Shown: positions 15,203 through 57,630 of the stretch, piece by piece | Position numbering within the stretch: the first letter of the stretch is position 1 | How the letters are laid out: the number at the start of each line of letters is the position of its first letter | DNA from: Zygnema cylindricum | Lineage: Eukaryota; Streptophyta; Zygnematophyceae; Zygnematales; Zygnemataceae | Assembly (NCBI GenBank): GCA_037447655.1 | Contig: JBBHKE010000838.1 | Coordinates: 56,001 to 120,000 of the forward strand | Reading direction: 5' to 3' | Length of the DNA stretch: 64,000 nt | Translations under genes and position numbers: made by a program | The notes under the pieces: model-generated | Told to the model about the DNA's origin: nothing | Database searches by the model: none | The model's input: only the letters and a program-made list of their open reading frames with translations

Positions 15203-15269
<67 letters not shown>

Positions 15270-26406: not shown

Positions 26407-26912
26407 TGTTACGATTCAATTTGTGAATCGTCTAATAGTGGACGCGCGCGATATTTCGGTTCGCGTCGACGTCACTTTATTTGAACCGTACACTTAATGT
26501 TTCGTGCGCGTATGGCGTACGAAAACATACATACGAAGGTTCGTGGTACAGTGCGCACGAAATCTTCTCTTACCTTCTCTTCGCTTCCCGAAGGAGAAAA
26601 GCACGCTGCTCTCTTCTGCGCGCTTTCTTCTTCCTTCAAGTCTCACTATGAGTGACGCGGCCCTTACCTTGCTTGTCGTGCACTGCACGTTAGTTAGGAG
26701 GCTATTTAAGTTGTTTGTTTTGCTGCAGCTTAGTATCTCAGTTTACATTATCTTGGGATAAATAGAGTAAAGAAGGAAGAGTGAGAGGAAAGGGAAAAAG
26801 CCTTGTAAAAAAGGCTTCGGCCATCTTTTTATATAAAGTATTTTTTGTGGCCATTTTGTGTGTGTATTTATTTTTTCTTCCGCTGCATACCATCTCAGTG
26901 GTATATTTTACA
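26407..26912 (+). repeat. 5' LTR of copia C (506 bp)
   Basis: It runs from TGTTACGATTC to TATTTTACA and is preceded by the target duplication AGGGG (26402-26406). The only difference I see from the 3' LTR is A at 26897 versus G at 32147. GATAAATAGAGTAAAG and the T-rich end probably belong to the R/U5 part. Two small frames in it are identical in both LTRs only because the LTRs are. Confidence 0.95.
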
Positions 26913-26913
26913 A

Positions 26914-26926
26914 TTGGTATCGGAGC
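26914..26926 (+). other. Primer-binding site of copia C (initiator Met tRNA type)
   Basis: TTGGTATCGGAGC starts two bases after the LTR and differs by one base from the usual TGGTATCAGAGC complementary to plant initiator methionine tRNA. This position and sequence are what a Ty1/copia element needs for minus-strand priming. Confidence 0.85.
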
Positions 26927-26974
26927 AGGCAGTGCTTCACTTTTAAAGTTTAAAAAGTGGGAAGTGTAGACGCC

Positions 26975-28447
26975 ATGGGGAGAAACAAGAATAAGTCTTC
27001 CCCATTCACTCCTTCCTCATCTTCCTTCACTCCATTGGAAACCGAGGATCCACCGGATCCCCCTCAGGCTGTTGCCGAGGCCAGTTTCAGTTTTAATGTT
27101 CCTCCTCCACTTGTGCCTCTCAAGCAAGAGACTAGTGGTGGAAGCAGTGTCGCCAAGGAACGATTAAACTCACAATTTGATAAGCTCCTCATCCTTATGG
27201 AGCAACGGTTCACAGACATTGACCGGAAAATATCGAACACGGTTCGAGGAAATCCGAATCCTGATCCGAACGGTGATGATTCCGGTGGAGAGGATGACGA
27301 CGATCCCCCGAAGAAAGATATTGGAAAGGGGAAAGTTATCATTGACAATGATTCAGACTTGGACGAAGAGTATGAACAAGATAACATGTATTCCATGCCG
27401 GGGAAAACTGTCGTTTTCAATGGAAATAATTATGCTTCATGGAAGAAGTACATCAAAACCCAATTAATGTTACGCCATCTATGGAAGGTGGTAATTGGTG
27501 AGGAAATGTTTCCGGACATCGATCGGAAAGCTCGGAGGACGTGGAAGAGAAAAAATCTTGCGGCTATTGCCAGATTAATGCAATCATGTGCTCCATCCAT
27601 CCACGACCACTTCCTCGCCCACGGATGTGCCCTTGAATGTTGGAGATCGCTTGAGAATCAATATGAGAAAGGTGCTCAAAATAAAGGGCAACACATTTTT
27701 GGAGAGTTCATGCAATTTAAAATTAAAACAAATAAGTCCATAGATGAAGCTCTAAAACGCTACAATATTATCATAGAATATCTTCTAAATAACGGTAGAG
27801 TCGTCATGGATGAGGATATACTTATCGGTCTATTACTAACACTTCCGGATAAAATGCTTCACTTAAGACAAATTTTACAAATTCGTGATAATTGCACCTA
27901 TGATTTTGCCGTAAATCATCTTAAAACTGCAGAGAAAGAGGCTAAAGAGTCTAGAGGACCAAAAGATTCAGGAACCTTAAATGCAACCTCACCCGATGCC
28001 ATGGAACTTAATTTTCTCCGTGGCAAAGGAGGCGGTAGAGGTGGAGGTCCTAGAGGAAATGGAGGTCCTAGAAACCAAGGAAATAGAAACAAAAAACCAC
28101 AAAATGAAAATACGACATGCTTTCGTTGTAAGCAAACCAGCCATGGATCCTCCACATGTTCGGATAAAAACAAAGATTGTTACTTTTGTGGAAAATTGGG
28201 ATACATCTCCACTCATTGCCTTTCGAGACTTAATGGTGGCGGTGTTGGTCGAGGCGATCGCCAAGGAGGACAAAGAAGCGCTCAAATATTTTCAATTTTG
28301 AACCTTCTTTCAACGCCTGATGACGTCGACAACGTCGACAGCAAAGAAAATGAGTGGGTGATCGATTCCGGTGCGTCGCACCACGTGTGCACTGACGCTA
28401 CCTTATTTTCGGATATGCGCCAACTCACAAATCCGAAACGCATATAA
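26975..28447 (+). CDS. Copia C Gag and start of protease
   Basis: I choose the ATG at 26975 in a good context (GCCATGG). In order: a Pro/Ser-rich N-terminus, an acidic stretch with DDDDPPKK, the copia Gag core (VVFNGNNYASWKKYIKTQL; SIDEALKRYNIIIEYLL), a Gly/Arg-rich linker and two zinc knuckles (CFRCKQTSHGSSTC, and CYFCGKLGYISTHC with Tyr where His is usual). The protease then begins with EWVIDSGASHHVCTD, whose DSGA is the catalytic motif. The frame stops at 28447, just inside the protease, and coding sequence continues in another frame. It is the structural part of a virus-like particle in the plant cell. Confidence 0.9.
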   Translation: MGRNKNKSSPFTPSSSSFTPLETEDPPDPPQAVAEASFSFNVPPPLVPLKQETSGGSSVAKERLNSQFDKLLILMEQRFTDIDRKISNTVRGNPNPDPNGDDSGGEDDDDPPKKDIGKGKVIIDNDSDLDEEYEQDNMYSMPGKTVVFNGNNYASWKKYIKTQLMLRHLWKVVIGEEMFPDIDRKARRTWKRKNLAAIARLMQSCAPSIHDHFLAHGCALECWRSLENQYEKGAQNKGQHIFGEFMQFKIKTNKSIDEALKRYNIIIEYLLNNGRVVMDEDILIGLLLTLPDKMLHLRQILQIRDNCTYDFAVNHLKTAEKEAKESRGPKDSGTLNATSPDAMELNFLRGKGGGRGGGPRGNGGPRNQGNRNKKPQNENTTCFRCKQTSHGSSTCSDKNKDCYFCGKLGYISTHCLSRLNGGGVGRGDRQGGQRSAQIFSILNLLSTPDDVDNVDSKENEWVIDSGASHHVCTDATLFSDMRQLTNPKRI

Positions 28448-28992
28448 TGTGGCAAGTGGTCACGTGGTTCACGTTGGTACACTGGGTACTGTACCTTTCC
28501 ATTTCATTACGTACGAACCTGATAGCGTGAAAAAATTCAACGAAAAAAAACTAACGAACGTCCTATTTATCTTAGACGGTTCAACAAACTTACTTTTTGT
28601 GCCGCAGAATCAACGTACCAGCTACATCGTCATTTCACACGGCAACGGTACCATACAAATTATGAAGGAAAATGGAGTTGTCGTTGGCGAAGGCGTTTTG
28701 ACCAACACCCTTCACAACACCTCATTTTGGCGGCGGCCACCAACAGACTCACTCATTGGCGGCGTATCTAGTCAAACGGCGATTCACAAGGAGGACTTAA
28801 GCTTATGGCATCATCGGATGTGCCATACCTCGGAGGGAAATTTGAAGAGAATGATCAAGACGTGTTCGCGGTCTTGATCTCACATCCGGAGAAAAGGTAA
28901 ATGGATGCAAAGGGTGCAGCCAAGGACGCCAAATCCACAAACCAAATCTAGCCAAGGACATAAATTATCGATCGAAGAATCCATTAGAGCTC
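28448..28992 (+). pseudogene. Copia C protease end and pre-integrase region
   Basis: After a frameshift near 28440 the sequence continues as NAYNVASGHVVHVGTLGTV, then LWHHRMCHTSEGNLKRM, the GAG-pre-integrase zinc-binding motif. A second shift near 28866 moves it to the frame reading CKGCSQGRQIHKPN, which completes the HHCC finger. The segment is therefore recognisable but split over two frames. Confidence 0.8.
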
Positions 28993-30072
28993 GTGCATAT
29001 CGATTTATGCGGACATATTACACCGGCAAGCATTGGGGGAAATCGATATGTCATGGTAATTATTGATGATTTTTCCCGATTCTCTTGGGTTTATCTTCTC
29101 AAGAAGAAATCCGATGCATCTGGAAAATTCAAAGAATGGCATATTATTGTTGAAAGACAATCCGATCGAAAATTAAAATCGGTTCGATCGGACAATGGTG
29201 GAGAATTTGTGATTTTTGAGAATTATTGTAAGGAGTGGGGAATCAGGAAACAATTCACCGCTTCATACACTCCCGAATCAAATAGTGTGGCCGAAAGGAA
29301 AAATCGAAGATTACAAGAAATGGTTCGTGCTATGGTATACTCTTCGGGCAACAAAATCTTCTTATAGGGAGATGCGATTTTAACCGCCAACTATATTTGC
29401 AAACGTCGTCTTACTTCAATATTCAGAGAGAAGACACCTTGTGAGCTTTGGAATGGACAAAAGCCAACTATTCATCATCTCCGCATTTGGGGATGCCGTG
29501 TTACGGTCTACATTGAGCGGCCTAAGCGAAGAGGCAAATTCCCACCAAGGAGTTGGCTCGGAATTTTTATCGGATATAGCTCGAAGGGAAATATATATCG
29601 AGTATATTATCCAATTCGTCACATCGTAGAGGAATCCCGAAATGTGGATTTCCATGAAGATTTGCAATCCGCAATTCGTTCATCGGAGAAGTTAAATCGG
29701 AATTTGGACTTCCATGAAATGCATGAAATTGAAGCATTTCCGGACATTGATGAATCGGATTCCAATTTGGAAAATGACTCAAAAGACAATCCTAAGAAAT
29801 CTCAATCTGAAGTAAAGGAAACTCCTTTCATTGAATTTGACAATCGAAGTGACACCACTCATGACTCTCGAATATCTACAAATACTCAAAAATCGGAAAG
29901 CTCAAATTCAAGCAAATCAAGTGGAAAGGTGATTGAAATTGAAGAGGAAAAGAAACCCGAAATTATACTTCGTCGAAGCAATAGAGAAAACAAAGGAAAG
30001 AAACCTGTTCGCTTTTTTGAGAATTCCCATTACTTTATCTCCGATTCAAATGAATCGGATTTAATTTTATAG
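28993..30072 (+). pseudogene. Copia C integrase, one internal stop
   Basis: All three catalytic residues are in place: HIDLCGH (first Asp), SVRSDNGGEF (second Asp) and NSVAERKNR (Glu). A TAG at 29365-29367 interrupts the frame where a Trp codon is expected (NKIF*GDA, probably TGG to TAG). The same frame then continues with CELWNGQKPTIHHLRIWGC and the acidic, Ser-rich integrase tail up to a TAG at 30070-30072. It is an otherwise well-preserved DDE integrase. Confidence 0.85.
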
Positions 30073-30739
30073 CAATCATTATGTACCAATTTAGCCGAAG
30101 ATCCTCAATCATACTCGGAGGCGAGAAATTCATGTGATTGGGAGTCTAAGTGGAAACACTTGGGAGAGGGAATTTAATTCAATTGTGGAAAATCAAACTT
30201 TTGAGGAAGTAATTTTACCGAAAGATAAAAAGGCAATCGATGCCAAGTGGGTCTTTAAAACAAAAACAGGTGCTTCGGGAGAGATAATTAAATACAAGGC
30301 ACGGCTTGTATGTAAAGGATTTCAGCAACGAGAGGGGGTCGACTATACGGAGACATATGCACCCGTTGTTAAATTCGACTCATTACGCATGATTATTGCA
30401 ATTGCTGCCGCAGGACAGAAACACGTCCACCAAATGGACGTCGAAACGGCCTTCTTGAACGGCGAGCTTGAAGAGGAGGTTTTTATGAAAGTTCCGGAGG
30501 GCGTGACGTCACAGAAAGGAAAAGTATGGCGCCTCCGTAAATCTCTCTATGGGTTGAAGCAGGCACCCAGGACTTGGTACCTGCGCCTACATAAAGTCTT
30601 ACTCGAATTTGGTTTCATCCGTACGGTCTCAGATTCTGGCGTGTACGTAAAAGGCGAGGGCGCAGATGAAACGATATTTTCGGTCTACGTGGACGACTTT
30701 ATAATGACGTCTGACAGTTTGGATTTATACGCGAGTTAA
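30073..30739 (+). pseudogene. Copia C reverse transcriptase, N-terminal two-thirds
   Basis: In the frame readable from 30134: NSIVENQTFEEV, KAIDAKWVFKTK, KARLVCKGFQQREGVDY, MDVETAFLNGELEEEVFM, SLYGLKQAPRTWY, and the active-site VYVDDFIM. A shift lies near 30175 relative to the preceding frame, and another near 30735 (TSDSLDLYAS*) relative to the next. All polymerase motifs are present, so only small indels separate this from a working domain. Confidence 0.88.
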
Positions 30740-31623
30740 AAGCATACTTGCGCCTACATTTCAAAGTAACCGACCTTGGGGAGGTACGGTACATTTTGGG
30801 AATCGAAATAATTCGATTCGCCAACGGCAATATAAAATTAAGTCAAGCTCAATATTGCCGCGAAGTGTTGACTAGGTTTTCTATGCTTGACGCGAAACCT
30901 ACTCTAACACCGTTGGATTCAAAGGTACAGTTACAGAAGTGTGACTATGAACCTACGGTTGACGTCCCATATCGCGAGGCGATTGGGAGTCTTATGTACC
31001 TAAGCGTAGGTACCCGACCGGATATCTCGGCGGCAGTATCAGTGGTCAGTCGATTTTGTCAAGCGCCAAAAAGGGCGCACTGGGAGGCGGTCAAGCGAAT
31101 CTTTCGTTATCTTGCAGGTACAATGGAAATCGGCTTGACGTACAAATCTGGCGATTCGCTAGAGTGCATCGGCTATTGCGATACCGATTGGGGAGGAGAT
31201 TTTGATACAGGAAAATCTACTTCGAGATACGCTTTTGTTTTCGGTGGGGCGGCAATCTCATGGAGTTCACGCCTCCAACCAACTGTCGCTTTAAGTTCCA
31301 CGGAGGCGGAATACATGGCTGCGTGTCACGCGTCCAAGGCTTCAGTTTGGATTAAAGAAATGTTAAAAGAATTAAAATTTCCTATTGGTTGTTTGACTAT
31401 TTTTACGGATAGCATGAGTTCTATGGCTTTGGTTAAAAATCCAGTTTTTCATAAACCTACAAAACACATACGCATACAATGGCATTTCGTACGAGATCTT
31501 GTGATGGCGAAAGAAGTGGAGTTTAAGTTTGTGACGACTTTGGAAGAAGCTGCTGATATGCTGACGAAGGCAGCCGTACATGATGTACTTATGAGGGGGC
31601 GGCCCAAATTAGGGTTGGTGTAA
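30740..31623 (+). pseudogene. Copia C RT C-terminus and RNase H
   Basis: It continues as KVTDLGEVRYILGIEI, PYREAIGSLMYLSVGTRPDI and HWEAVKRIFRYLAGT, then RNase H with GYCDTDWGGD (Asp), LSSTEAEYMA (Glu), IFTDSMSSMALV (Asp) and EAADMLTKAAVHDV, ending at TAA 31621-31623. The catalytic residues are intact. It is out of frame with the upstream RT part by one base. Confidence 0.88.
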
Positions 31624-31645
31624 CGACGTCGACAATTCTCCAATT

Positions 31646-31656
31646 GAGAGGGGGAT
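31646..31656 (+). other. Polypurine tract of copia C
   Basis: GAGAGGGGGAT lies immediately before the 3' LTR, the expected place for the plus-strand primer. Confidence 0.8.
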
Positions 31657-32162
31657 TGTTACGATTCAATTTGTGAATCGTCTAATAGTGGACGCGCGCG
31701 ATATTTCGGTTCGCGTCGACGTCACTTTATTTGAACCGTACACTTAATGTTTCGTGCGCGTATGGCGTACGAAAACATACATACGAAGGTTCGTGGTACA
31801 GTGCGCACGAAATCTTCTCTTACCTTCTCTTCGCTTCCCGAAGGAGAAAAGCACGCTGCTCTCTTCTGCGCGCTTTCTTCTTCCTTCAAGTCTCACTATG
31901 AGTGACGCGGCCCTTACCTTGCTTGTCGTGCACTGCACGTTAGTTAGGAGGCTATTTAAGTTGTTTGTTTTGCTGCAGCTTAGTATCTCAGTTTACATTA
32001 TCTTGGGATAAATAGAGTAAAGAAGGAAGAGTGAGAGGAAAGGGAAAAAGCCTTGTAAAAAAGGCTTCGGCCATCTTTTTATATAAAGTATTTTTTGTGG
32101 CCATTTTGTGTGTGTATTTATTTTTTCTTCCGCTGCATACCATCTCGGTGGTATATTTTACA
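31657..32162 (+). repeat. 3' LTR of copia C (506 bp)
   Basis: Same length and limits as the 5' LTR, with one observed difference. It is followed by AGGGG (32163-32167), matching the 5 bp before the 5' LTR. This pair of duplications defines the element as 26407-32162, 5756 bp. Confidence 0.95.
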
Positions 32163-43392: not shown

Positions 43393-44813
43393 GGGTAACC
43401 TTCCGTCAGGCGAAAAGTGGGGTTGTTTACTGGAGAAAGTACCCTTCCGTACTAGGCCGTACTGTTTTTTTTTTTTTTGTTACAAAAGATGTTTACTAAA
43501 TATTCGTTGAGATTCTCCAGACTTCTTGGAGAAAAACACCACCGTCCGATTTTCAATTTTCGACGCAAACGCTTCTTGTTTCCAGTACGTAGCTAGTCTC
43601 CTCCGACTGTCCTCGGGAGGAGAGTTTGTGATTACTGGACGCGTGTTTTGGTCCACTTATAAAGTCAGAGTCGATCCATGACAGATGTGAAGCAATAAAC
43701 TTACATGTGGCAAATGGAGTGTACCGTGTGACATCAAAGGCAGCCTGTTCGATGACAAAAAAATCTTGGTTGTATAGCCAGCCTGTTCGACGACAAAAAA
43801 AACTTGGTTGTAAGACACCTTGTGACGTCTCCTTCATAAATGTGCGATACATCGATTCACGTTCAAATGGTACATTCTTGGACATTTGTACAAACTTAAA
43901 TTTTGCAACGGTTTTCGTGGCCGTTGATACCACAACAACCCTAAGAAAGTTCAGATTGTACATTAGCGTGACGCTACACCGCGAATCGTAATTAGAGTAA
44001 ATTACTCTAATTCAGTCGCTCGAAATTTCGATTCTATTACATCAAATAGAGTAAATGATTCTAATTTTTTAATTATTCTAATTAAGGTAAGTTTAATTAG
44101 CGTAACAAAATTGTAATATAGGTTCGTATTAAATAGTGTGGAGAATGGACGACGTTCGACCGTGTAAAATTGTACTTTTTTAAGTAAAAAAGTACAAATA
44201 ATGATTTTATACGATCGCGCTCGCACGTGAAATCGCACTAAACGAAAAATTAATCACATCGAAAAAAAGCCGTACGCATAACTCTCGTCCGTCGACAACA
44301 TCGTCGTCAGTGTGAACATCAGCTGACATTCACCGCGACAAATAATACTAACGTCATAATGACGTCAAAACTATACGGACTGACAGATTCTGTACATCTA
44401 CGTAATTTAGTGTTCATAATTTCAGCGCGGATATTTATTGCCGACATAACCCAATATAGAGTACTTAAATAAATTAGAGTAAACTTCCTGTGTGAAAAAG
44501 TTCTATCACATAAATTAGAGTTCATTACTCTAATTGTTTTTTTGGTTTTTTTACTCTAATTTTTTCATTACTCTAATTACGATTCGCGGTGTACTAGATA
44601 TTTTAATCGGCATCTGCCCGTACACATACGCAGCTGCGATTTTGTCCTTTTGGAAATGATGATTATTCCCGGGCGGCTCAACAGGTCCTCCGTGGTACCA
44701 ATCGCAATCTAACACCTCATTCACTGGCACGACCTGATCCAAGTGTGTTACAAATATTACTACCAGTAAACGTGTTCGTACGATTACTGGGAACGCCTGA
44801 TGGAAGGTTACCC
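43393..44813. mobile_element. PIF/Harbinger-like element, TSD TTA, with nested MITE
   Basis: Termini GGGTAACCTTCCGTCAGGCG and CGCCTGATGGAAGGTTACCC are flanked by TTA (43390-43392 and 44814-44816). Without the nested MITE it is about 800 bp. A 37-40 bp motif, AGCCTGTTCGACGACAAAAA, is repeated in tandem near 43742-43808. No transposase is readable. Confidence 0.88.
43977..44591. mobile_element. TA-type MITE, 615 bp, nested in the Harbinger element
   Basis: It starts CACCGCGAATCGTAATTAGAG and ends CTAATTACGATTCGCGGTG, with TA on both sides. It is collinear with 12185-12800 in the opposite orientation, almost equal in length and clearly similar throughout. Confidence 0.88.
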
Positions 44814-46133: not shown

Positions 46134-46933
46134 AAATCATCGCTGTCTGGGCACATAATCCCCGTTCCGGCGCTGGGAATACCACAATTGATCCCGGTGT
46201 TGTGCCGCATGTAAATTCCCCATGGCGAGAGGCATCTCTCGGTGGAAGATTTTGGCAAGATCAGCGATCAGTTTTTCGACAGTCCCCTTGTTATCCATTT
46301 TCGAAGAACCACCGCTTGGGCCGAGGCAGCCCCGGGCAAAATGGGATGCCGTCCGAATAAAATGATGTAAGGGCTATAGGAGTGGAGGGAAGCCTGTCTG
46401 TTGAATCTGTATCCCATGGCAATCCAAGGCACCCTTTTGTCCCATTCTCCCAAGTCCTCTTCAACGACATATTTTCGTAGTGACCGCTTAACTGTTTGTA
46501 CGCACCTTTCGGCAAAACCGTCGGCTTGAGGGTGGTCGCAATTGGTAAGTGGATGGTCGATGAGGCATTTCTCCAAAAGATTTGAAATTTTTCCGCCGAA
46601 TTCCGATCCTTGGTTTGTCAGAACCTCTGCTGCTGCTCCAAATTGAGATAGGTACCTCTACAAGAAAGCGTCGGCGATGGACTTGGACTCCTTTCGGGGC
46701 AGAACCACAAGCTCTATCCATTTTGAGAAATGTTCAATCATGACCAGGACGAAACGATTCCCACGTCTGCTGGTCGGAAGAGGTCCCAAAAGATCTAAAG
46801 ACCACCGATAAAACATCCCCCGGATAGGGAGAGAATGCAGCTTAGTCTCGCCTTTTTTTGTCAAAGGAGGCCTTAACTTGATCACAGGAAGAGCAAGTCT
46901 GTACGATTCGGTTGACTTGGGCCCGCAACCCAT
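46134..46933 (-). pseudogene. Gypsy integrase catalytic core (broken)
   Basis: The sequence is readable in pieces: YRWSLDLLGPLPTSRRGNRF with the first catalytic Asp, then LTNQGSEFGGKI where the second catalytic Asp is replaced by Asn (AAC for GAC), then DHPQADGFAERCVQTVKRSL with the Glu. LHSYSPYIILFGRHPILPG follows. A TAG near 46660 and at least two frame changes separate the pieces. With the Asp lost, this integrase could not work even if the frames were intact. Confidence 0.8.
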
Positions 46934-49574
46934 GCCACCAATACGAGCCTGTAACTAGGGAAGTGGTCCGCTTTTGCCCCAAGTGTCCACATTGCTTGTG
47001 GAGATTAGTAATCAGAGTTTCTCGATCTGATGGGGGAGGAACCACTTTCCTCATACCGTCTGACCATTTTCGGAGGAGAACACCTCGGTCCCATTCATAT
47101 GTCGCCATCCGGGTCTGCACTCGGGACAATTGACCTCCAGCCAAATGGGGAAGAGGCGACCCTTGCTGGATGGATTGGAGAGCCTCAGAGTCGTTCCAGA
47201 TGTCTTTCCGTCCGACTCTAATGGATGCCTGCCCCTCAACATCTGCTGCAAAGGTGGTCAGTCCCCCCCCGGATGGAGGAAGCCAAATTAAAGCGGAGGA
47301 TGCTCGAATGAGTCCCAAACTGATTTCAGGGTCTTCGTCATGCCGAGCGCCGGTGGAATCCAGCGTAGAAGGATCAGGGTTTCGGCTAAGTCCGTCGGCA
47401 TTCCCATGGATTTCCCGTGCCCGGTGAACGATGCTGAAATCATATTCCTGCAGGATAACCACCCATCTGGCGAGTTTGCCGGTCAACTTACTATTTTCTA
47501 TGATCCATTTCACGGGTTGGTGGTCGGTTATCAGTGTGAAAGGGACCGCGTACAAATAAGGCCTGAAATACTGGATGGCCCACACAGCTGCCAAAAGCTC
47601 CCCATGGTAATTGCTATAATTCCCCTCAGCTCGGTTGTTGCTCCAGCTGGCATAAGCCACCACATACTCGGCTCCGGCGTCGTCAACTTGGGCCAAAACC
47701 GCTCCCAATCCAAACCTGCTCCAATCAGTGTAAAGAACGAAAGGTCGCAGGTGATCAGGCATCCGGAGCACTAGGTGTTGCTTCAAGGCATCTTTCAAGA
47801 ACTGGAAAGCGATTTGCTGTTCCTCGGCCCACAACCATTCTTGATCTTTCCGCAATAGCTTATTTAGGGGCTGGGCGTGACTACTGAACTCACGAATAAA
47901 CCAACGATAGTAGTTGGCTAGGCCGAGAAAGGTGCGCAAGGCAAAAATTTCCTGCGGGGGAGGAAGAGCGTCAAGGGTTGCAACCTTAACCATATGGGGA
48001 CCCACGGTCCCTAGAGTCACCTCATGTCCGAGGTAAATAATTTTCTGCACCCCAAAAATACCCTTGCCCGGATGACATTTCAAGCCCGCTGCTTGAAGGG
48101 CCCGGAGAACGATATGGATATGCTCTAGGTGTTCCTCAAAGGTCTTTGAGAATATTATCACATCGTCGATGTAGCACCGGGCACAATCGATTCCTCGGAG
48201 CGCTTTGTCCAAGGCCCGTTGGAACTTGGCTGGTGCATTCTTCAGTTCGAAGGGCATATAAAGCCACTTATAAAGTCTGGATCCGGCCCAGAATGCCGTT
48301 CTCTCCCGGTGTTTTGGTTCCATGGCAATCTGGTGAAATCCATTCTTCATATCCAGTGTGGAGAAGATGGTGGCCCCGGCGAGAGAGTCGAAAATCTCTT
48401 CCGCGGTTGGCATTGGATAATGGTCAGGAATGGTGGCCGTGTTCAGCATGCGGTAATCCCCACACATCCGGAAATCTACGGTTTTCCCAGATGAATCCTT
48501 CTTAGGAGGGAGAACTGTGGGGGAGGCAAACCCATGGAGTCCTGTGCTTTCCTGAACCAACCCGGCGTCTACCAAAGTTTGGACCTTTGCGGTGATAAAC
48601 TCCTTCTCCTTGAAGCTGAGAGGGTACTTTTTTTGCCAAACAGTTGCGGTTTCGTCGATCAGGTTAATACGAAAGGGGGTTCCTTTGTATATTCCGACAT
48701 CTGTTTCCGACCTGGAGAAAACTTGATTGTTTTTCGCCAAGAGTTCCGTTAGCTGTTCTTTCTGCTGAGGGTCCAGCTGCTCCCCTAGAGTCCAGTCCAT
48801 CTTTCCCGACTCAACTGCGGCCCATGCTTTCGGTGGTCCCTCCCAGAGATTGATGTCGAAATCTAGCCCAACCGGGGGATCCGCCTCTACTCCTTCGGAT
48901 AATACTTTACTGCCGACAACTTCCGCTAAGCCGTCCCTTTCTGAACTACCGTTCCCCCCCACTGAAGGAACTCTGGGGTGTAGAATTTTTCTCTTGTGTC
49001 TCCTCCCCTCAAGCTGCAAAGTGGCTTGCATTGACAACAATTTTGGAGCTTGAAGGTATCTTCTGCGGGAATCTGGAGAAAGGAGACTGGAATATGCTAG
49101 AGCGTGTTGTGTAACCCATGTAATGGCATTCAACTCCATGCTCTGCCTGATTAAGTTGCATCTTTGCACTTCTGAAATACCTGGTGCGGCCGTGGATCCC
49201 GGATTGAATCCCATGGCTTGTTCTCGTTCCGAAATTGTTGGTGTTGTCCATATTCCGGCCTTGGTGTCAAAAATCATCCCAGTTGCTCCTTTTCTGTAGG
49301 CATGACTGTGAGGAAAAGAGACTAACGTGGGGAGGGCTTGGCGAGGAGTTCCGGGTGTGTTGCATTGGAAGAAAGGAGGATTATCCGGTTTGATTACAGG
49401 GGTGGGGAGTCTCCCTTTTCCAAGTATTTGATGTACTGAAGTTTGAGGTTTGGGGGTCTGTTTCTCCAACAGTTGCCGGAGGACCGGAAGCGGGATCATA
49501 TTGGTCCAATATGCCCGAAGTGTGTGCGCTCGAGATCCCATCTGAGTAGCATCAAAAACGAAAGGAGCTCCCAA
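46842..49574 (-). pseudogene. Gypsy pol: end of methyltransferase, RT, RNase H, IN finger
   Basis: This is the longest surviving frame, 910 codons. Residues 1-165 finish the second methyltransferase copy: QMGSRAHTLRAYWTN (motif VIII), GIWTTPTISEREQAMGF (IX) and CNLIRQSMELNAITWV (X-like). After a linker, reverse transcriptase runs from about 265 to 520, with DFRMCGDYRMLN, FSTLDMKNGFHQI and CYIDDVIIFS. RNase H follows (VLYTDWSRFGLGAVLAQ; YHGELLAAVWAI; LITDHQPVKWI; HGNADGLSR). The integrase HHCC finger begins at about 858 (HKQCGHLG ... CSSCDQVKA). The domain order is Ty3/gypsy. All RT and RNase H catalytic acids are present. The unusual point is that methyltransferase sequence is continuous with RT in one frame. 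Confidence 0.9.
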
Positions 49575-49969
49575 AGTCCGGGTTACTTGTTTTCGCTGTC
49601 TACAACCTGTTTTGGTTTATCATCCCCCGGGTGGACGTTCTCCAGGATGTACCCCACTGGTGTGTTCTGGAGCTGCTGAATCCACGATATTAATGTAATC
49701 ATTTGGTAGAAGGTGCCACTCCTGCGGTCTTGATGCCCTTTTCCTTGTCCTGCGAGGGAGTATCCCTGACAAGGCCATCCCGCCACAACCAGATCTATTC
49801 TTCCCAGAATTGCTAAATGGGGTGCCATAATGTTATCCACGTTCTGGGGAAGACTCCGGTGAGCTTTGGAAATAGAAGACACTGGAAGCTGCTGAGGATA
49901 TAGGCGGTGCATTTGATGACGGCGATGTTCGCTGACAGCTCGTGCTTCCAGTGAAATCTCCACTTTCAA
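49575..49969 (-). pseudogene. Cytosine methyltransferase copy B, central part
   Basis: The frame begins at motif II (VEISLEARAVSEH), then LYPQQLPVSS, NVDNI, LGRIDLVVAGWPCQGYSLAG (motif IV; catalytic Cys codon 49769-49771), DRRSGTFYQM (V), and TPVGYILENVHP (VI, ENV). It ends at a TAA at 49583. A one-base loss there separates it from motif VIII in the frame starting at 49574. Motif I is absent: the copy is joined at its start to the motif VIII end of copy A. The family transfers a methyl group from S-adenosylmethionine to cytosine C5. Confidence 0.85.
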
Positions 49970-50219
49970 GAGGAACCAAGTTGGTCCAATATGCCCGAAC
50001 TCTGTGGGCTCTCGATCCGATCTGAGCTACATCAAAAACTATGGGAGTCCCTAGAACCTTGGTCACTTGGTTCCAACTGCTGACCACATGTTTTCTCTTA
50101 TCATTTGTGGGGTGAACGTTTTCCAAGACGTACCCCACTGGTGTGTCCTGGCGTTCCTGTAACCCTGTTATTAGTCTGGTCATTTGAATGAAAGTTCTGC
50201 TACGGATGTCCTGGTGTCC
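49833..50219 (-). pseudogene. Cytosine methyltransferase copy A, C-terminal half
   Basis: In the same frame as the N-terminal half, after one stop: ITGLQERQDTPVGYVLENVHP (motif VI) and IVFDVAQIGSRAHRVRAYW (motif VIII, with the conserved Arg pair). At about 49965 copy A passes into copy B out of phase, and the residues after WTNLVPLESG are a meaningless reading of copy B. Motifs IX and X are therefore supplied only by copy B downstream. Confidence 0.85.
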
Positions 50220-50690
50220 TCAGCCCTGTCCTGCTAACGAATACCCTTGGCATGGCCATCCAGCGACCAGAAGGTCTACCCTTCCGAGCTTTTCCAGATG
50301 GGACTCCGTGATATTATCCACATTATGGGGAAGCGTGCGATGAGAGTTAGACATGGCGGACACCGGAAGTTGCTGTGGGTAAAGTTGGTGCAGCTGTTGC
50401 AAGCGGTACTCACTGACTACACGGGCGTCCGGGTCTATCTCCACTGCCGAGTAAGTTTCTTTTTTGTATCTAGCTTTTAGGACGGCTTCCAGATCGGAAC
50501 TAATGCCAGAAAATAGGGATAGAATCCTAAGTCCTGAAAGCGGGATTTGTAGTGACACCAATTGTCGATTAAAGTCTTTCCCTTTGTTAGGAACCGTGGG
50601 AAGTTCCGATCGAGGGACTTTTGCTGCTCCGGGTGATATTGCAGCCAAGCTCCTGTCCACTTCCCGCCGAAGTGTGGCCATCTGTACCAA
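50220..50690 (-). pseudogene. Cytosine methyltransferase copy A, N-terminal half
   Basis: In the same frame as the protease: a linker, then LSGLRILSLFSGISSDLEAV (motif I, the SAM-binding loop), YSAVEIDPDARVVSEY (II), VDLLVAGWPCQGYSLAG (IV; catalytic Cys codon TGC at 50250-50252). It is broken by TGA at 50220-50222, which looks like CGA with C changed to T (copy B has Lys at this position). The LSLFSGI form of motif I recalls DRM/DNMT3, whereas PCQG recalls DNMT1 and bacterial enzymes. A tree is needed to place it. No target-recognition or chromatin domain is visible next to it. Confidence 0.88.
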
Positions 50691-51389
50691 TCGGTTCTGA
50701 TACTCCTTTTCCCACCGCTTGGAAATAGGGAATTGCTAGATGTCTCCTGCGATATCTATTGAACTAGCGAACAACTCCGCCGGAGAGGAAGTGGAATACA
50801 CTGGGTAACAACCAGACACCGGAACATTGGTCTTCCCCCAGTTCCATAAATTTAAAGGAATCACAACTTTGGTGCCTTCGGGATTTCCTGGGTCCCGAAT
50901 TGTACATTGCTCTTTCTAAACACTTAAACTCATATTCATCCGGGTCGAAGTAGCCATTCCCAACAGGATTTCAAACTGATTCCCCTCTACCACTAAGAAA
51001 GGAAGTTCAATTTTCACCTTCTGTCAAGCATCATCGAAGAATTCAATGTTCATGGCTTTGATGATTCCATGGACGGGTTGACTGCCGCTGCTGACCGTGG
51101 TTAAGCAGATGTTACTTGGGCAGATTTGGGGTCTGAGTTCACCCGACATTTTCTGCAGTGCCGAAGTGGTGATAATGTTTGGAAGTGCTCCGGTGTCGAC
51201 CACAGCATCTTGGTACCCGTCGTACCCATTAAGCTTGAAGTTGCCCGTCAGGTTTAGAATGAGCGCTACATACAAGGTTTTATAGTCCCTATCCACCATA
51301 GGGGTTTTAGGCTCTCGTGACAAATATACCGTCTTGGTTGGTGTTGCCCGGTTGACTTTGTTCTTGCCAGAATGAATTTCTTCTCCCAA
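50691..51389 (-). pseudogene. Gypsy aspartic protease
   Basis: In the frame shared with the gag C-terminus and methyltransferase: YQDAVVDTGALPNIITTSAL with the catalytic DTGA, then VHGIIKAMNIEFFDD, a TGA at 51024-51026, then IELPFLVVEGNQFEILLGMA, the usual end of a retropepsin. Further TAG codons lie near 50917 and 50738. The protease would cut the polyprotein. Its frame continuity with the methyltransferase shows that the latter was part of Pol, not a separate insertion. Confidence 0.8.
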
Positions 51390-52610
51390 GGCCTAAATGA
51401 GGATATCTTCGGGCAGATTATGGGAGGAAGCGAGGGTCTTAACATGCGTCAAGGCATATGGCATAAGGTGCCGTACTAGCATGACAGCAGGCTTTGAAGA
51501 AGGGAGTGGGGCTCTCGGAGAGGAAGCCACCGAATCTGGCTCCAGTTCCTTTTCGTTCCCCTCCTTGTAATCACTTTCCGAACCGGAATCGAGCATTGGT
51601 GGGGTTTTGGGTGCCTCCTCGTCAGGACGTTCGGCCAGGAACCGCTCAAACCAATCCTGAGTGCTCTGTTTGTCCTCTTCCAGTGATTTCTTCTCCTGCT
51701 GTAGTTTCTCGCTCTTGTAATTCTCGAAACCGGGAGGCATTTTAGGCTTAAGAGGAGGAGGAGGAGGTTGGGTGGGCTTCATTCCAAGACTTGTGTCACT
51801 GTTCAGCACTACTGCCCGGGGCGTGAAAGATAAAGGCCCGGTGGCCTTCCGGTTGTGGTCTTTCTTGCTCATTTTCTGCCCGTCTCTCCTCTGATCACAG
51901 GTTGAAGAGCAGAGTTGTCTACGACCATCTCCCACTCCCACATTCCACGCTCCGTGAAGTAAACTGCTTGCATGGTTGGCATTTGGGGGTTCCACATCCC
52001 AGCCCATCATATCATCTTCGTTAGCACCCGATGTGCTTTGAAGCTCAAGCTCCGCTAGCTTTTTTAGTAACTCTTGCTTCTGTCTTTGGAGTCGTTGCGC
52101 TGGCGTAAGAGGAGCAGGCCGGTAAGTCGATCCCAAACGAAGAGCAGCCAATTCTGCAGCCATGGCAGCCATCTGCTGACTCTGCTGTTGGATTATTATC
52201 TCCGGTGTAAGTCTTGCTGGAGCAGTCGTTAATTGTTCTGGTGTCACTGGTGTAGGCAGCACTGGGCGCTCCCAAGGGTAAAGGAGTTGTAGGGGAAGAG
52301 GGTTAACGGAAGTCTCTCCTCTTCCCGTGAACAGAGCAAATTGCATCATTTCCTTCGGGATCCCGTTCTTACGGAAACATTGCCCCTCATTGTGCCCCAT
52401 AAAACCACAGGCCTCGCATTTGTGGCCCTCGGTGGTATACTTGCTCCGAATCTCGTTGTGGATCTGAGCATCGTCAAACTTGGGCAGTTTGATTTGCCGC
52501 AGTTGGGACTCGGACATTTTCGAAGTTTCGCTCCATGGAGTGGGTCGGTAATTGTTCTTAGTGACCGGTGTTCTCTCCCCCCCCCCCAACTCCTTTGAGT
52601 CGTTCTTCAT
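51390..52610 (-). pseudogene. Gypsy Gag C-terminal region with CCHC knuckle
   Basis: It contains the intact zinc knuckle CEACGFMGHNEGQC near the start (about 52390-52430), a Gln/Ala coiled-coil-like stretch (IIQQQSQQMAAMAAELAALR; QRLQRQKQELLKKLAELELQ), then Pro-rich and charged spacer. It lies one frame away from the upstream Gag block and in the same frame as the protease. It has no known enzymatic domain. Length and disorder are unusual for a gypsy Gag. Confidence 0.7.
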
Positions 52611-52629
52611 GCTGCTTCTGGCTCCTTTC

Positions 52630-53307
52630 TCAACGCTCTACATCCCATTCTTTCAGCTTGAGGGCTAGCTCCGGTTTGAGTTTCCTGTTGCAGCGTTTCC
52701 ATCTATGTCCTGGTTGTTGGTAATTTAGGCAATTGTACAGAATTACCTGATTGTCTGCCCCCATTGCAGGTTCGAGCCCGCTGTCCACAGCTTGCTTCCC
52801 TTTAAGCTTCCACAAAGCTTGGAGTTCCGCTTGTTCTTCCCCACTTAAGGAAGTCTCCCCGGCGAATCCTGCAAAATTTGCTCTTGCCTTGTCGGTCACA
52901 GCTTTTTCCCTAGCCTCACTGTGAACGAAGTGGTCGTATAACTTCATGGCCACCAGGGATATGTCCTTGGCCGAGGGAATTATGTCCTGGATTGCCTGTC
53001 CTGCAATCCAATTATCCAAGGCAGTCTGCCCTGTCGGTCCGAAAAAATTACGGACAGCAATGAAATACTTCGTGGCCATTGCAGGAAGATCTATGGTCGA
53101 CAGCTTAGTTTTCTGGCACATGCTTGATAGACGGTTGAAAAGAGTTTGGGGTGTCTCGCTCTTCAGGCATCGGAATTCCGTGAATTCCTTGATGGCCGAT
53201 TCGTTCCTCTCGGTGTAGAGGAGTCGCTAGATATTCAGAAGAGTGGTATAAGGGGTGGGATTGGCAACCATGCGTGTTGCCGCCCGAGCTGCCTGAATAG
53301 CTTGCAG
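52630..53307 (-). pseudogene. Gypsy Gag middle with altered zinc knuckle
   Basis: It reads MATKYFIAVRNFFGPTGQTA, SLVAMKLYDHFVHSEAREK, and NCLNYQQPGHRWKRCN, a CCHC knuckle whose second Cys is now Tyr (TAC, a G-to-A change). Upstream, beyond 53121, the frame is interrupted by stops and recovered in the same phase in the next block. It probably forms the second half of capsid and a first nucleocapsid knuckle. Confidence 0.65.
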
Positions 53308-54063
53308 CTAGTTTACATAGGCCCTTCCTTGGGCCTGCATTTTCATATCATCGGTGAATGTGGCTGTCACAAGGGTGGCCGCCGCTGAAGCCAAGTCAGC
53401 CTCCGCTTGAAAAACGGCCGCATCAAGAGTGGGATCAGATATCTTGATGCTAGGAGCCATCAAAAGAGGTTGACGCTCCTTATAGTTTGCCAACGCCCCT
53501 CCAGAGAGGTAGTTGACCATCATGGGAAAAAGGGTCGTCTCGAAGTCATCCGGCACTGCTCCTCCCCTGTACTTATTGATTTCTGATTGGGTGAACGATT
53601 TCCAAAACAACTCGAAATCTGAGAAAGCGATCCCCGAGCTGTCCCCTGTAAATATTCGAATATCCCCCATTACTTTTTCTTCTTCCGCTGATTGGGTGAA
53701 CTGAAAAAAAGAAAGGCCGGTGGGAATGACGAACTGTGCCGGCAAAGTGACCCCTTTGTCCTCTTCTTCGGGATCGGGACCGCCTTCTCCTCCAGTAGGA
53801 GGTGCTGCTCTGCAAGGTGTGGATACTCCTCCCGCCGAGGAAGTACCAACCCCTGAGAGGCTGGCTAGAGGAAGGGTATTCCTCTCGGGAAGAACTCCTG
53901 GCCTCCTGGGTGCAGATGGTTGCTGCGTCGGAAGACTTGTTTGGCCTGGTGTGGCAGAAAGATGGGCCCACTCCCCTTCGTCCACTCCTCGATATCCACG
54001 GGAATACCTTTCGTCCTTAAGAACTTCCTCCTCTGAAAGGATGTGAATTCGAGGTTTGTTCAA
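53308..54063 (-). pseudogene. Gypsy Gag capsid-like region
   Basis: It reads EWAHLSATPGQTSLPTQ, then FQFTQSAEEEKVMGDIRIF, SGIAFSDFELFWKSFTQSEI and MVNYLSGGALANYKERQPLL, which resembles the retrotransposon Gag pattern in which a helical segment follows a F..F..F..WKS/F motif. It is in frame with the block at 52630-53121. The upstream block is in another frame. Confidence 0.6.
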
Positions 54064-54224
54064 AGGTTGATCTCTGGGCAGGGATGGAGAAGAAGACGAG
54101 GAAGGCCAGTTCTGAGGAGAAGGAGTTCTTCTCCGGAGAGGGGTTTGTTTCCGGAGCCGTCTTCAAGGGTTTCAGGAGGCGGAGTTCCGGAACTGGAGGA
54201 TGGGGAACGCCGGTGAGGAGGAGA

Positions 54225-55394
54225 TTAGACGTCTGACTTGTAGGGTAAATTCAGAGGACCTGGTGACCCACGGTCTGCTCCAGTAAGGGAAACGGAAGGT
54301 GAGGGAGAGGAGATGGGATTGTCCCGGGGTTCTGCTGCCGGATCCTGGGAGTGAAAGGTAGGAGGATGAGGAGGATCAGGGGACAGTCTGGGTGGAGGCG
54401 AAGGAGGTGTAGACGGTCTCAAGGGTATTTGAATTCTTTCGTCCGGTCGCAACTCCACTAAGGCCTCAACAGCTTCAGAAACCTCCACCGAAACAAAAGT
54501 AGGCTCTCCCCGTGGAGCTGCTGCGAATTCAGACGGTGAATCTGCACCAAAACCCCCAATATTAGGTCTTGTGTCTGCCCCCTCTTTCCGTTGAAGAGAA
54601 GGTTCCTGACCAGTCTCCGAGGAAGGAGCCTGGGGTTGAGCTCCAAACGGGGGTTCTACTACTGGTGTTGGAGGAATCCGCCCACTGAGGATCCCACTTG
54701 TCCTCCGCCGAGCTTCCCGAAAGAGGTTTAATTCCTGCTCCCACAACTTTCTCCGTTCTTCCTCCAAAGCCTCCCAATCTACGGTGACGGGTCCAGCCCC
54801 CGCCGTAGCCTGGCCCTGAGATTTCAAAATTTCCACTAGTTCCTTAGCCCTTTCCACTACTCCGGTCAGATCAGCTATCCCTGCTCCTAGAATTTCTGGA
54901 TCTGTAGGCCTGGCTCTCCACAATCCCTCGGACAACTCTTCCGGTTCTGTTTCCGGAACCTCTGGGTCAGTGTGTTCGGGTCGCCAGAACCCTCCGTCAG
55001 GGCGAACACGGTGTGCCATAGGGGAAGATCTCTCGGTGGAGACTGGCGCCGGCGTTGGGGAAGGTTCTTCCTTGGGAAGAGGTGCAAATCTACCCTTACT
55101 ATCCCTGTGGTCAAACTTCTTCCCCCTCACCGGCTTTGGAGCCCCCCTCTCGCTGCCACCTGCTCCCCTATGAGACCTCGAAGCAAGGCGCACCCGGGAC
55201 GGTCGGCTAGTTGCAGTGTCTTGGGAAGAAGATGGAGGAGGGCGAGAAGGAGGAGCCCTCCTAGGCCTTTCCTGCAAGGACTGTGAGGAACCACTCTCTG
55301 AAGAGCTGCTTAGAATCTCCACCACCCCTCCCACTGGTTTAACCACCCGGGGTCGATCAGACCGAGCTACTCTCTGCACCAACTCCTGCTTCAC
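54225..55394 (-). pseudogene. Gypsy N-terminal Pro/Ser/Arg-rich region
   Basis: A long disordered segment: SSSSESGSSQSLQERPRRAP, a basic part with RGKKFDHRDSKGRFA, a twice-occurring motif (GGFWRPEHTDPEVPE and EGLWRARPTDPEILG), a helical stretch EEERRKLWEQELNLFREARR, and a Pro-rich end. No known domain is seen. Together with the next block it makes an N-terminal extension of over 500 residues before the capsid-like part, longer than usual in gypsy elements. Confidence 0.55.
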
Positions 55395-55410
55395 CTTCAG
55401 TTCATGAAGA

Positions 55411-55917
55411 TCATGAAGAGCAAGGAGTTCCTTTTCGACCAGGGCGGCTGGGATCCGTCAAAACCGCAGGGTCAATCTGAATTTCGGCCCTGGGAATCTT
55501 TGATCTGGTGTGAAGCCCGACTTCCGGAAGAGGACCCAAAAGGGGCTCCCGCTGAGCTTGCCTCTTTGGCCTGGCCCGGGGTGACACTCGGTTTCTTTCT
55601 TGAGCCGGTGCTCTGGACTCCTTTCTTTCCTCGGCAAAGGTTCTGGAGGCCTTCGCCAAGGAGGGAAAATGTTCAGGAGTGAGGCTAGGAGGAAAAGGGG
55701 GCGAAGTTTGCGGGTCGGGCGGTTTTGGAGAAGTCTCAACTCTAACAGACTCAGGCATCATCCCCTGGAGAAACGGCTCTATGTTTGCCGACGAGGTGAA
55801 AGGGACAGATTCTTCGGGAACCTGTGACTCTTCTTCTGGTGCCACCGCTTATTGATTCGCCCGTTGTTCCGGCCGGGCACCGGAGAGATTCTTATCTTGG
55901 GCTTCGCCTCCCCCCAT
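55411..55917 (-). pseudogene. Start of the gypsy polyprotein
   Basis: The ATG at 55917 (ATCATGGG) opens MGGGEAQDKNLSGARPEQ, broken by one TAA near 55850, then continues in frame as APEEESQVPEESVPFTSSAN and a Pro-rich sequence with LTPEHFPSLAKASRTFAEER. It ends where the frame changes to the block at 55394. I prefer this start because the same frame continues past the stop and a TATA-like element lies about 70 bp upstream. No host-gene similarity is recognised. Confidence 0.55.
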
Positions 55918-55999: not shown

Positions 56000-57630
56000 C
56001 TATCCCCTCTAATCCGGAGGAGACAGTGGCTTTTCAGTACTGTACTTATTCACGGGAAGTCTACAGCATTTGTTCCCTCAAAACCCACTGTTTCGATATA
56101 AGGAAGAGGTAGTTTTACTCCGGGGAGTTCACGCCAAAGCAAAAGAAACTACAAGTGAATACACAAATGCACTACCACGTGGACACATAGAAAATAAATA
56201 GGAATGGCTATTTCAGATTTAGCAATATCACCTTGACCACAGAAATAAAATATAAGATGGAAGATATAAAAGATGGCGAAGCAAGCTTAACATACCCCGG
56301 CAATTTACGAGGACAAAGAGACAAGGGCGAACTCTCTCCCGATGGTAGTGTAAATAGGTATGGTACTCCTTTAACCCTCGGTGTCCGCAGTTTGGAACCG
56401 GCCGGAATCTTCTCAGTTTCAAGCAGCGAAAGATCCAAAAATCACCCAAAGGTACGATAGTGCCAACTACCAGCCCGAACTATGATTCCCACAATGGACA
56501 CATCCAAAAAAAAGATGGCAATAGAGTCAAACAAAACAAAGATTCTTCCAAAAGAAAGTTTGTTGGATTTTCTGAGGGTTTTCACAGGAGACAGTACTAA
56601 AAAGCAACCTGTCTCCTTCGGCACCAAGTGCCTTATACAGCAAAAGCTTGTCCAGTTTCAGGTCCAAAAGTCAAACCTACGCTATTAGCCAATGAGCGGC
56701 CAGCAACGGCAACCGAACTGACATAAGACAAAATAATGTGTACTACACTTGGGGCAAAAAGTTAGACCTCTGACTACGGCTAGATCCGCGGCCGATGTTC
56801 TTATTTGTTCCATAGCTTTTAAGACAAAGTACTAAAAGGACACGGAAGTGCCAAGCTTTGACTTAATGTAATAAATGACTCACTGGTCAGCTGAACATGA
56901 ACTGAATTGCTATAGACAGCTAACAGCATAATCTAGATTACAGTCCGGAAGTCTACGTGGCAATCCACAATGTACCCCCCACTAGGGCTGGTGGAAGCTA
57001 GTGCTATGTAACGGAACTGCGATCTCTCAGACGGTAGAACTTTGTCGTCCAGCCTCCGTTAGGCACGAAATAAAGTGCGTCTTGTTCCGTAGAGGAAATC
57101 CTATAATCCTTCCGGCTGGTTGTGCTTGCTTCTCCGAAGTCTGAGAACAGTACGGGTAGGAAAGGTACAGAAATCCTCGGTAAATAAAAGGGGTGCCTGA
57201 AAAGCACTCGAGCTTGACACTACTCACTTAACTTCTCGTGTCGACACCTTCATCTGTACTTATTCTGTCTGTCTGTACAAAATAATGAGCAGTTTTGTAC
57301 AAACTGATTCATTTTTCTCATTACACTATTATAAAAAGGTGGAAAAAAGAGCATTAATCTTTGTTCAAATATTCAACGCTTGAACATGTGAGAACAAGAT
57401 CTCACAATTTTTCGTTTCTTTATGATTGGAAATCAAATCTGAGGTTGTTTTTCCTCAGCAACGCAATTTCACCTATTGAACGCCATTACCTAACACTTAT
57501 TTTGTACGTCTGTACGAAAAAATGAGCATTTTTAGTACAGGTTGACACAATTTGTACATTGCACTTTTTAAAAGCATTCCAAATAACGGTAACTAACGGT
57601 AATTAAACTGTACCTATATTCACGTTGAAA
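56000..57630. other. Probable gypsy LTR/leader or spacer, limits unclear
   Basis: No coding frame. I searched for a partner of the putative 3' LTR start (TGGAGGACCGACC) and did not find one. 57240-57600 holds GTAC-rich AT sequence (TCTGTACAAAATAATGAGCA and CTGTACGAAAAAATGAGCA, a near-duplicate pair about 250 bp apart). Confidence 0.35.

What the first reader, a model, noticed from the sequence alone, without database searches (positions are those of the whole stretch)
49575..50690. Cytosine DNA methyltransferase inside a Ty3/gypsy polyprotein
Seen: between a retropepsin (DTGA, about 51260) and a gypsy reverse transcriptase (YIDD, about 48160) on the minus strand lie motif I (LRILSLFSGI), II (VEIDPDAR), IV (PCQG), VI (ENV), VIII (RAHRVRAYW), IX and X of C5-cytosine methyltransferases. 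The domain shares the protease frame, and its second copy runs unbroken into RT. Known: methyltransferases carried by retroelements are reported from dinoflagellates and charophyte algae. Inference: this is a land-plant or close-relative example, which could let the element methylate its own DNA or tune host silencing.
Basis: partly seen in the sequence, partly recalled or inferred. Interest (0 to 1): 0.93.

Follow-up and report, generated by a model that had tools for sequence, protein, structure and literature searches.

The report
Jumping gene carrying DNA-methylating enzyme
A retrotransposon family in a plant or green-alga genome carries its own DNA-methylating enzyme of the DNMT3 class; this kind was known from one alga, and the copy read here is a damaged mosaic of two subfamilies.

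Summary
On the minus strand, between a retropepsin (51392-51027) and a Ty3-type reverse transcriptase, lies a C5-cytosine methyltransferase (MTase) of the DNMT3 class (family profile vs DNMT3A E 4.5e-23). It belongs to the element: of 27 other genomic copies, found by their MTase, 25 have the protease upstream and 26 the RT downstream; Closterium and Marchantia proteins fuse MTase and RT. The 353-Mb host has at least 239 MTase places. Median dN/dS is 0.155 for MTase (26 copies) and 0.165 for RT (6 copies). The 'second copy' is no family trait: the 27 others have one MTase. Window 50730-49967 comes from another subfamily (94-96% to L075); the return, 480 bp out of register and out of frame, doubled motifs II-VIII. 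Ends are DIRS/PAT-like split repeats, with 4-bp target duplications in 4 of 7 copies. This matches KnitGypsy-Dnmt3 of Klebsormidium (PMC5890265): a new member of a known kind. The host is a streptophyte; land plant or alga is unresolved. What the methylation does for the element is inferred.

The parts
56042..57219 (-). 5' terminal repeat A, begins TGTCAAGC
   Evidence: 88% to A of copy C746 over 1188 columns; ends seen
54228..55457 (-). upstream ORF, 410 aa, no Pfam match; gag-like by position only
53311..54162 (-). upstream ORF, gag-like by position, kept in copy C746 (82% aa)
52633..53226 (-). upstream ORF, gag-like by position (90% aa to copy C746)
51396..52637 (-). upstream ORF with a CCHC knuckle pattern CEACGFMGHNEGQC (read by eye)
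51027..51392 (-). retropepsin-like protease, VVDTGA
   Evidence: no Pfam match; found upstream of the MTase in 25 of 27 copies
49967..50735 (-). MTase copy 1: N-terminal stretch and motifs I-VIII; block from subfamily Y (L075)
50220..50222 (-). in-frame TGA inside MTase copy 1
49964..49967 (-). junction where the sequence returns to subfamily X, about 480 bp out of register and out of frame
49490..49963 (-). MTase copy 2, motifs II-VIII, subfamily X (92-93% DNA to L024, L029, L065); frame break near 49590
49038..49574 (-). rest of the MTase of copy 2 (motif VIII to X), open into RT
46845..49616 (-). 924-aa open frame: end of MTase, RT, RNase H, integrase zinc finger
48003..48632 (-). reverse transcriptase, YIDD; 75% aa to P0003
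47436..47837 (-). RNase H
46304..47039 (-). DDE integrase, frame-broken
   Evidence: 69-71% aa to P0003
45759..46136 (-). C-terminal PHD-finger-like stretch after the integrase
   Evidence: 41% aa to P0003; weak in the window itself (E 0.075); PF00628 above cut-off in relatives P0005 and P0082
45387..45694 (-). 3' terminal repeat B, ends GCTCGACA; purine-rich run before it
   Evidence: 70% to B of copy C746
15341..17497 (+). host gene: RUP-like WD40 protein, used to place the host
   Evidence: RUP2 8gqe E 6.3e-64, COP1 3e-51

Best explanation
It is a decayed, mosaic copy of an abundant streptophyte family of Ty3-type retrotransposons whose Pol carries one DNMT3-class cytosine-C5 methyltransferase between protease and RT, and a PHD-like finger after a DDE integrase. 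Its ends are split direct repeats (A-ORFs-B-GC-A-B). Shown: the fused domain, its class, its place in the copies read, purifying selection, the repeats and the mosaic origin of the tandem. Inferred: the MTase travels with Pol into the particle and methylates the element's own new DNA, probably at CG, so that insertions arrive marked and quiet and cost the host less (about 0.4; effects on host chromatin, on cDNA protection or on rival elements share the rest). Inferred: replication passes through circles opened at the palindrome GACA-GC-TGTC, which forms where B meets A, and the integrase inserts the opened form with a 4-bp target duplication (about 0.4).
For: MTase and RT in one ORF in P0003 (57% over 98% of the 924-aa query), P0004, P0027, P0008 (Closterium), P0050 (Marchantia). 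PR upstream in 25 and RT downstream in 26 of 27 genome copies found by their MTase. At least 239 MTase places. DNMT3 class: PDB profile search, single-sequence search, AF2 model of the P0003 domain, pLDDT 88.8, Foldseek. CQ, EN and AHR.R invariant in the 13 aligned domains. Median dN/dS 0.155 over 322 of 325 pairs of 26 copies. Repeats and TSDs. Mosaic.
Against: No enzyme activity was tested; the KnitGypsy-Dnmt3 domain gave no methylation in yeast, called inconclusive by its authors (PMC5890265, passage read). The low dN/dS comes from distant pairs; pairs with dS under 0.15 have a median of 0.39 for MTase (94 pairs) and 0.28 for RT (8 pairs), as expected if many copies decay after insertion. 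Closterium P0046 and P0095 have EH instead of EN in motif VI (not among the 13). The window copy has no TSD (GTAG/ACAT), nor have C1485 and C1390. CpG is low in the element (0.66 vs 1.07 in the rest; GpC 0.80 vs 0.87), but at codon boundaries of its ORFs it is 0.54-0.90 with GpC 0.54-0.93, and other ORFs of the window give 0.60-1.23, so this does not show methylation. The circle route rests on the arrangement of repeats alone. No RT-led search was made, so the share of family copies without an MTase is unknown.
Confidence: 0.8

Rival explanations
1. The MTase and the retroelement are separate insertions lying side by side.
For: The window copy has frame breaks between PR, MTase and RT.
Against: Same neighbours in 25 and 26 of 27 other copies and single ORFs with MTase and RT in proteins of several sources.
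Confidence: 0.01
2. The tandem of two MTase halves is a functional two-domain enzyme of this subfamily, by analogy with DNMT3 dimers (recalled).
For: Copies 1 and 2 differ mostly at third codon positions (26/17/68 changes in 119 codons; NG86 dN 0.20 with dS saturated there, 1.89 on 153 codons), so both evolved as coding sequence.
Against: 27 of 27 other copies have one domain; the two halves belong to different subfamilies and the junction is out of frame.
Confidence: 0.03
3. The MTase serves to act on host chromatin, guided by the integrase's PHD finger, for example to quiet or protect insertion sites.
For: PHD-like stretch C-terminal to the integrase in the window and in many relatives.
Against: No targeting data; the finger lies at the far end of Pol and may only guide integration.
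Confidence: 0.25
4. The MTase domain is a passenger kept for structural reasons, without methylation.
For: 14 of 19 relatives with this column have Glu instead of Pro before the catalytic Cys, and two Closterium rows have EH in motif VI; the KnitGypsy domain showed no activity in yeast (PMC5890265).
Against: Catalytic Cys, EN of motif VI and AHR.R of motif VIII are invariant in the 13 aligned domains; dN/dS as low as RT's.
Confidence: 0.15
5. A DNMT1, CMT or DRM, or a recent bacterial or viral DNA methylase, was captured instead of DNMT3.
For: Motif IV is (P/E)CQ as in bacterial enzymes, not PCN; fragments alone hit HhaI, DRM2 or Dcm first; the only protein found with copy 1 as query was a weak match, 26%.
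Against: Whole-domain and profile searches rank DNMT3A/B far ahead of DRM2 (5e-12), HaeIII (5e-9), HhaI (6e-9) and DNMT2 (5e-6); nothing named DNMT1, CMT or DNMT5 is among 57 matches to E 1. Motif order is not rearranged as in DRM.
Confidence: 0.1

Closest known systems
KnitGypsy-Dnmt3 of Klebsormidium nitens (de Mendoza et al. 2018, PMC5890265)
   Same: Dnmt3-class domain in the Pol ORF of a Gypsy element, DIRS-like repeat structure, several copies, Ka/Ks under 0.2, streptophyte host (passages read).
   Different: Other host, with at least 239 MTase places. The passages read do not say where in Pol the domain sits, and the text does not hold the term PHD; figures were not seen. K. nitens proteins P0022, P0048 and P0088 fall in another branch of the RT tree.
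SymbioDIRS-Dnmt3 and SymbioLINE-Dnmt of dinoflagellates (same paper)
   Same: Retroelement-borne DNMT, Dnmt3 class in the DIRS case, sharing an ORF with RT.
   Different: Tyrosine-recombinase or LINE elements; here a DDE integrase, and no recombinase domain found.
Marchantia polymorpha MARPO_0091s0058 and Closterium sp. NIES-54 proteins (database records P0050, P0008, P0074)
   Same: MTase before RT; P0050 has LLDSGA at 151, MTase 357-711, YIDD 868.
   Different: About 36-45% identity; named only as hypothetical or unnamed proteins.
PAT/DIRS split-direct-repeat elements (recalled)
   Same: A-ORFs-B-A-B arrangement of the ends.
   Different: Ty3 pol with DDE integrase and 4-bp TSDs instead of a tyrosine recombinase.

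Membership tests
KnitGypsy-Dnmt3 kind (Gypsy with Dnmt3 in Pol and DIRS-like repeats) | Dnmt3-class MTase inside Pol of a Ty3/gypsy element | tested here: met
KnitGypsy-Dnmt3 kind (Gypsy with Dnmt3 in Pol and DIRS-like repeats) | Repeats arranged as in DIRS elements | tested here: met
   A-ORFs-B-GC-A-B in C746, C1214, C1485, C1390 and the 3' half of C152; A-ORFs-B in C161, C928 and the window; C665 and C1374 not settled (ends cut by the stretches)
[quoted passage not shown]
   median dN/dS 0.155, 26 copies
KnitGypsy-Dnmt3 kind (Gypsy with Dnmt3 in Pol and DIRS-like repeats) | Direct sequence kinship to the K. nitens MTase | not tested
   no K. nitens protein with an MTase was among the 120 listed of 433 hits
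DNMT3 class of C5-MTases | Best match to DNMT3 over the domain, motif order I to X not rearranged | tested here: met
   (profile and model are of relatives)
DNMT3 class of C5-MTases | PCN in motif IV | tested here: not met
   (P/E)CQ in 19 of 19 relatives with this column and in both window copies; PCN of DNMT3A seen in the alignment
DNMT3 class of C5-MTases | De novo methyl transfer to DNA | not testable with these tools
   needs an assay
DRM | Rearranged motif order | tested here: not met
   order I, II, IV, VI, VIII, IX, X
DIRS/PAT (tyrosine-recombinase elements) | Tyrosine recombinase | tested here: not met
   no such Pfam match in the element's ORFs; rve integrase in relatives
Ty3/gypsy (Metaviridae) | PR-RT-RNaseH-DDE integrase order | tested here: met
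Ty3/gypsy (Metaviridae) | Conventional terminal LTRs | tested here: not met
   split direct repeats instead

The most novel reading that the evidence does not exclude
A Ty3 lineage that joins DIRS/PAT-type replication geometry to retroviral-type integration: circular DNA is opened at the palindrome GACA-GC-TGTC formed where B meets A, a DDE integrase with a PHD reader inserts it with 4-bp duplications, and an onboard DNMT3 writes the methylation state of the newcomer. One-repeat circles would give A-ORFs-B, two-repeat circles A-ORFs-B-GC-A-B, and both forms are seen. The MTase sits at two different places in two groups of this lineage (before RT, or after RNase H), so its position was changed or the domain was taken twice.
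Probability: 0.4. Interest if true: 0.78.

Novelty: new member of a known kind. Interest (0 to 1): 0.6.

Why it matters
Methylation is a main way for hosts to silence such elements, so an element that keeps its own de novo methylase under selection is a paradox. [quoted passage not shown] the Marchantia record speaks against the wider form of that claim. At least 239 MTase places in one 353-Mb genome, in subfamilies that can be told apart, make it possible to ask whether these elements shape the host methylome.

Tried and rejected
Tandem as a working two-domain enzyme: rejected. Separate insertions: rejected. Bacterial-type capture suggested by fragment searches: outweighed. CpG depletion as proof of methylation: not conclusive. 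Ordinary LTRs in the window: none found by self-comparison, explained later by the A/B structure. MTase tail alone against proteins: no hit, although later found relatives that hold it, so one search was a miss of sensitivity. The tail alone against the PDB: one meaningless match. Viral contigs: the RT ORF gave none; the MTase alignment gave 21 loci with 28-48% matches to parts of the domain, taken as phage methylases and not followed. tRNA and Rfam scans of the window: nothing. Host placement: one dynein heavy-chain gene (three hits on one contig, two over the cut-off) hints at motile cells (recalled link), but the dirigent-family search meant as a land-plant marker did not complete, nor was the count of B-GC-A junctions.

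The label 'noMT' in the RT tree mostly means that the protein begins downstream of the MTase place; it is not evidence of absence. P0062, P0066, P0110 and P0027 were left out of that tree for their span, and 90 of 117 rows were used, by the quick method. Of the 23 MTase-bearing proteins 20 were aligned (P0006, P0063 and P0081 were not), 17 went into the MTase tree (P0046, P0072 and P0111 left out for shortness) and 13 into alignment A1.

Full report
What is there. The minus strand of window 57219-45387 carries one Ty3-type element: terminal repeat A (57219-56042), gag-like ORFs, protease (51392-51027), a methyltransferase region (50735-49038), RT, RNase H, a frame-broken integrase, a PHD-like stretch (46136-45759) and terminal repeat B (45694-45387). 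Pfam finds RVT_1, RNase H and the integrase zinc finger in one 924-aa frame, and PF00145 in both MTase halves. PHD is only a weak Pfam match in the window itself (E 0.075), but the stretch aligns to the same part of P0003 (41% aa), and PF00628 is above its cut-off in relatives P0005 and P0082.

Class of the enzyme. Copy 1, with X at its one stop, has DNMT3A as best solved relative (E 4e-9), then DNMT3B, HhaI and DRM2. A profile of 13 related domains gives DNMT3A 4.5e-23, DNMT3B 1e-20, DRM2 5e-12 (a chain named only 'DNA methyltransferase', 4onj, which I recall as tobacco DRM, 1.3e-13), HaeIII 5e-9, HhaI 6e-9 and DNMT2 5e-6, and nothing named DNMT1, CMT or DNMT5 among 57 matches to E 1. The AF2 model of the P0003 domain (pLDDT 88.8) has chains of DNMT3 entries as the 50 listed best Foldseek matches. 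Unlike DNMT3A the family has (P/E)CQ in motif IV: Pro in 5 and Glu in 14 of 19 relatives.

Part of the element. Of the 120 proteins listed among 433 hits to the 924-aa ORF, 23 carry the MTase: 11 before RT, as here, and 12 after RT or, in P0082, whose frame lacks RT, after RNase H. Pfam places it between RNase H and the integrase in P0018, P0037 and P0082. The second group falls in one RT clade (15 rows, 12 with and 3 without a seen MTase; SH-aLRT 100), and the MTase tree splits the same way (100/99). Named hosts with the MTase before RT are Closterium and Marchantia polymorpha. The Marchantia protein has a protease motif at 151, MTase 357-711 and YIDD at 868. The window's RT is nearest to P0003, a JGI metagenome protein (73%), and this group is next to Closterium rows (94).

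The host genome. It has 352.8 Mb in 2689 contigs. Two searches, each scoring 150 of 1213 and 1256 candidates, gave 151 and 150 matches; the 150 and 150 places I entered make 239 distinct places on 204 contigs, a lower bound. Of 27 other copies read across the MTase, all found by their MTase, 27 have one such domain, 25 a protease upstream (not L053, L067) and 26 an RT downstream (not L054). Eight more, read in part, also show one. How many RT copies lack an MTase was not measured. Two places have open frames of 1520 and 1525 aa around the MTase, so uninterrupted copies of this region exist. MTase dN/dS has a median of 0.155 (26 copies, 322 of 325 pairs); RT gives 0.165 (6 copies, 15 pairs). 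For near pairs (dS under 0.15) the medians are 0.39 and 0.28; for MTase pairs with dS above 0.6 it is 0.10. This is what selection on active lineages followed by decay of dead copies would give.

The tandem. Copies 1 and 2 are 69% alike over 478 bp, with changes of 26/17/68 at the three codon positions of 119 codons. Upstream of about 50730 the window is closest to L029 and L065 (89% and 88% over 632 bp, L075 73%). From 50730 to 49967 it is 94-96% to L075 and 64-71% to L023, L024, L025, L029 and L065. From 49963 on it is 92-93% to L024, L029 and L065 and 73% to L075 over 475 bp. So a block of one subfamily sits in an element of another, and the return point doubled motifs II-VIII, out of frame. 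The copy 1 subfamily itself has some thirty places at 88% aa or more. Template switching during reverse transcription is the likely cause (inference); exchange between DNA copies is possible.

The ends. Nine copies were looked at. In C746, C1214, C1485 and C1390 the order is A (about 1180 bp), ORFs, B (about 280 bp), GC, A, B; C152 shows the 3' half. C161, C928 and the window have A, ORFs, B. In C665 and C1374 the stretches do not show both ends. A begins TGTC and B ends GACA; where they meet the sequence is the palindrome GACAGCTGTC. Direct 4-bp duplications flank C746 (TCCT), C1214 (GAAT), C161 (CAGG) and C928 (GGTA), and not C1485, C1390 or the window: 4 of 7 with both ends in view. The two A repeats of one copy are 97-98.5% alike in C746, C1485 and C1390 and 93-96% in C1214. 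No tyrosine recombinase was found. If RT uses sites next to A's end and before B (A is followed by a constant stretch, B preceded by a purine run), its long repeat is B-GC-A; circles with one or two such repeats, opened at GC, give exactly the two forms seen. Alternatively A-ORFs-B arises later by recombination between the two B copies. This is inference.

Against print. De Mendoza et al. 2018 (PMC5890265; abstract and passages read) report Dnmt3 domains in the Pol ORF of a Gypsy element of K. nitens with DIRS-like repeats and Ka/Ks under 0.2. That is the same kind. Searches of the open-access library (listings seen, only 12 of 290) listed no paper whose title or abstract reports such elements in other streptophytes; one search found the 2018 paper alone. 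A 2025 paper (PMC12344493, passages) cites the earlier cases as LTR Copia and DIRS. A 2019 paper says that land plants, such as tracheophytes, lack them (PMC6338049, passages). Host DNMT3 genes, a possible source, are kept in non-flowering streptophytes (PMC6453930, passages). Subscription papers and preprints were not searched.

Host. A RUP-like gene and the named relatives point to a streptophyte; one dynein heavy-chain gene hints at motile cells. Land plant or alga stays open, since the genome server did not answer further.

Noticed in passing
P0018, P0026, P0036, P0037, P0041, P0044, P0060, P0064, P0072, P0081, P0082, P0111: A related group of elements carries the MTase after RT (between RNase H and integrase in P0018, P0037 and P0082) instead of before RT.
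   Followed up: partly
MTase motif IV, relatives: 14 of 19 relatives have Glu in place of Pro before the catalytic Cys.
   Followed up: no
46136-45759 and relatives: PHD-like finger at the C-terminus of a Ty3 integrase, in many relatives, where other groups have a chromodomain (recalled).
   Followed up: partly
26407-31956: Copia element with 300-bp end stretches 100% identical, so a recent insertion.
   Followed up: no
57219-45387: CpG observed/expected 0.66 in the element against 1.07 in the rest of the window.
   Followed up: partly
12183-12802 and 43975-44593: Inverted pair of a 620-bp repeat, 87% alike, 31 kb apart.
   Followed up: no
14720-15280: Long (GA)n-like low-complexity stretch upstream of the RUP-like gene.
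   Followed up: no
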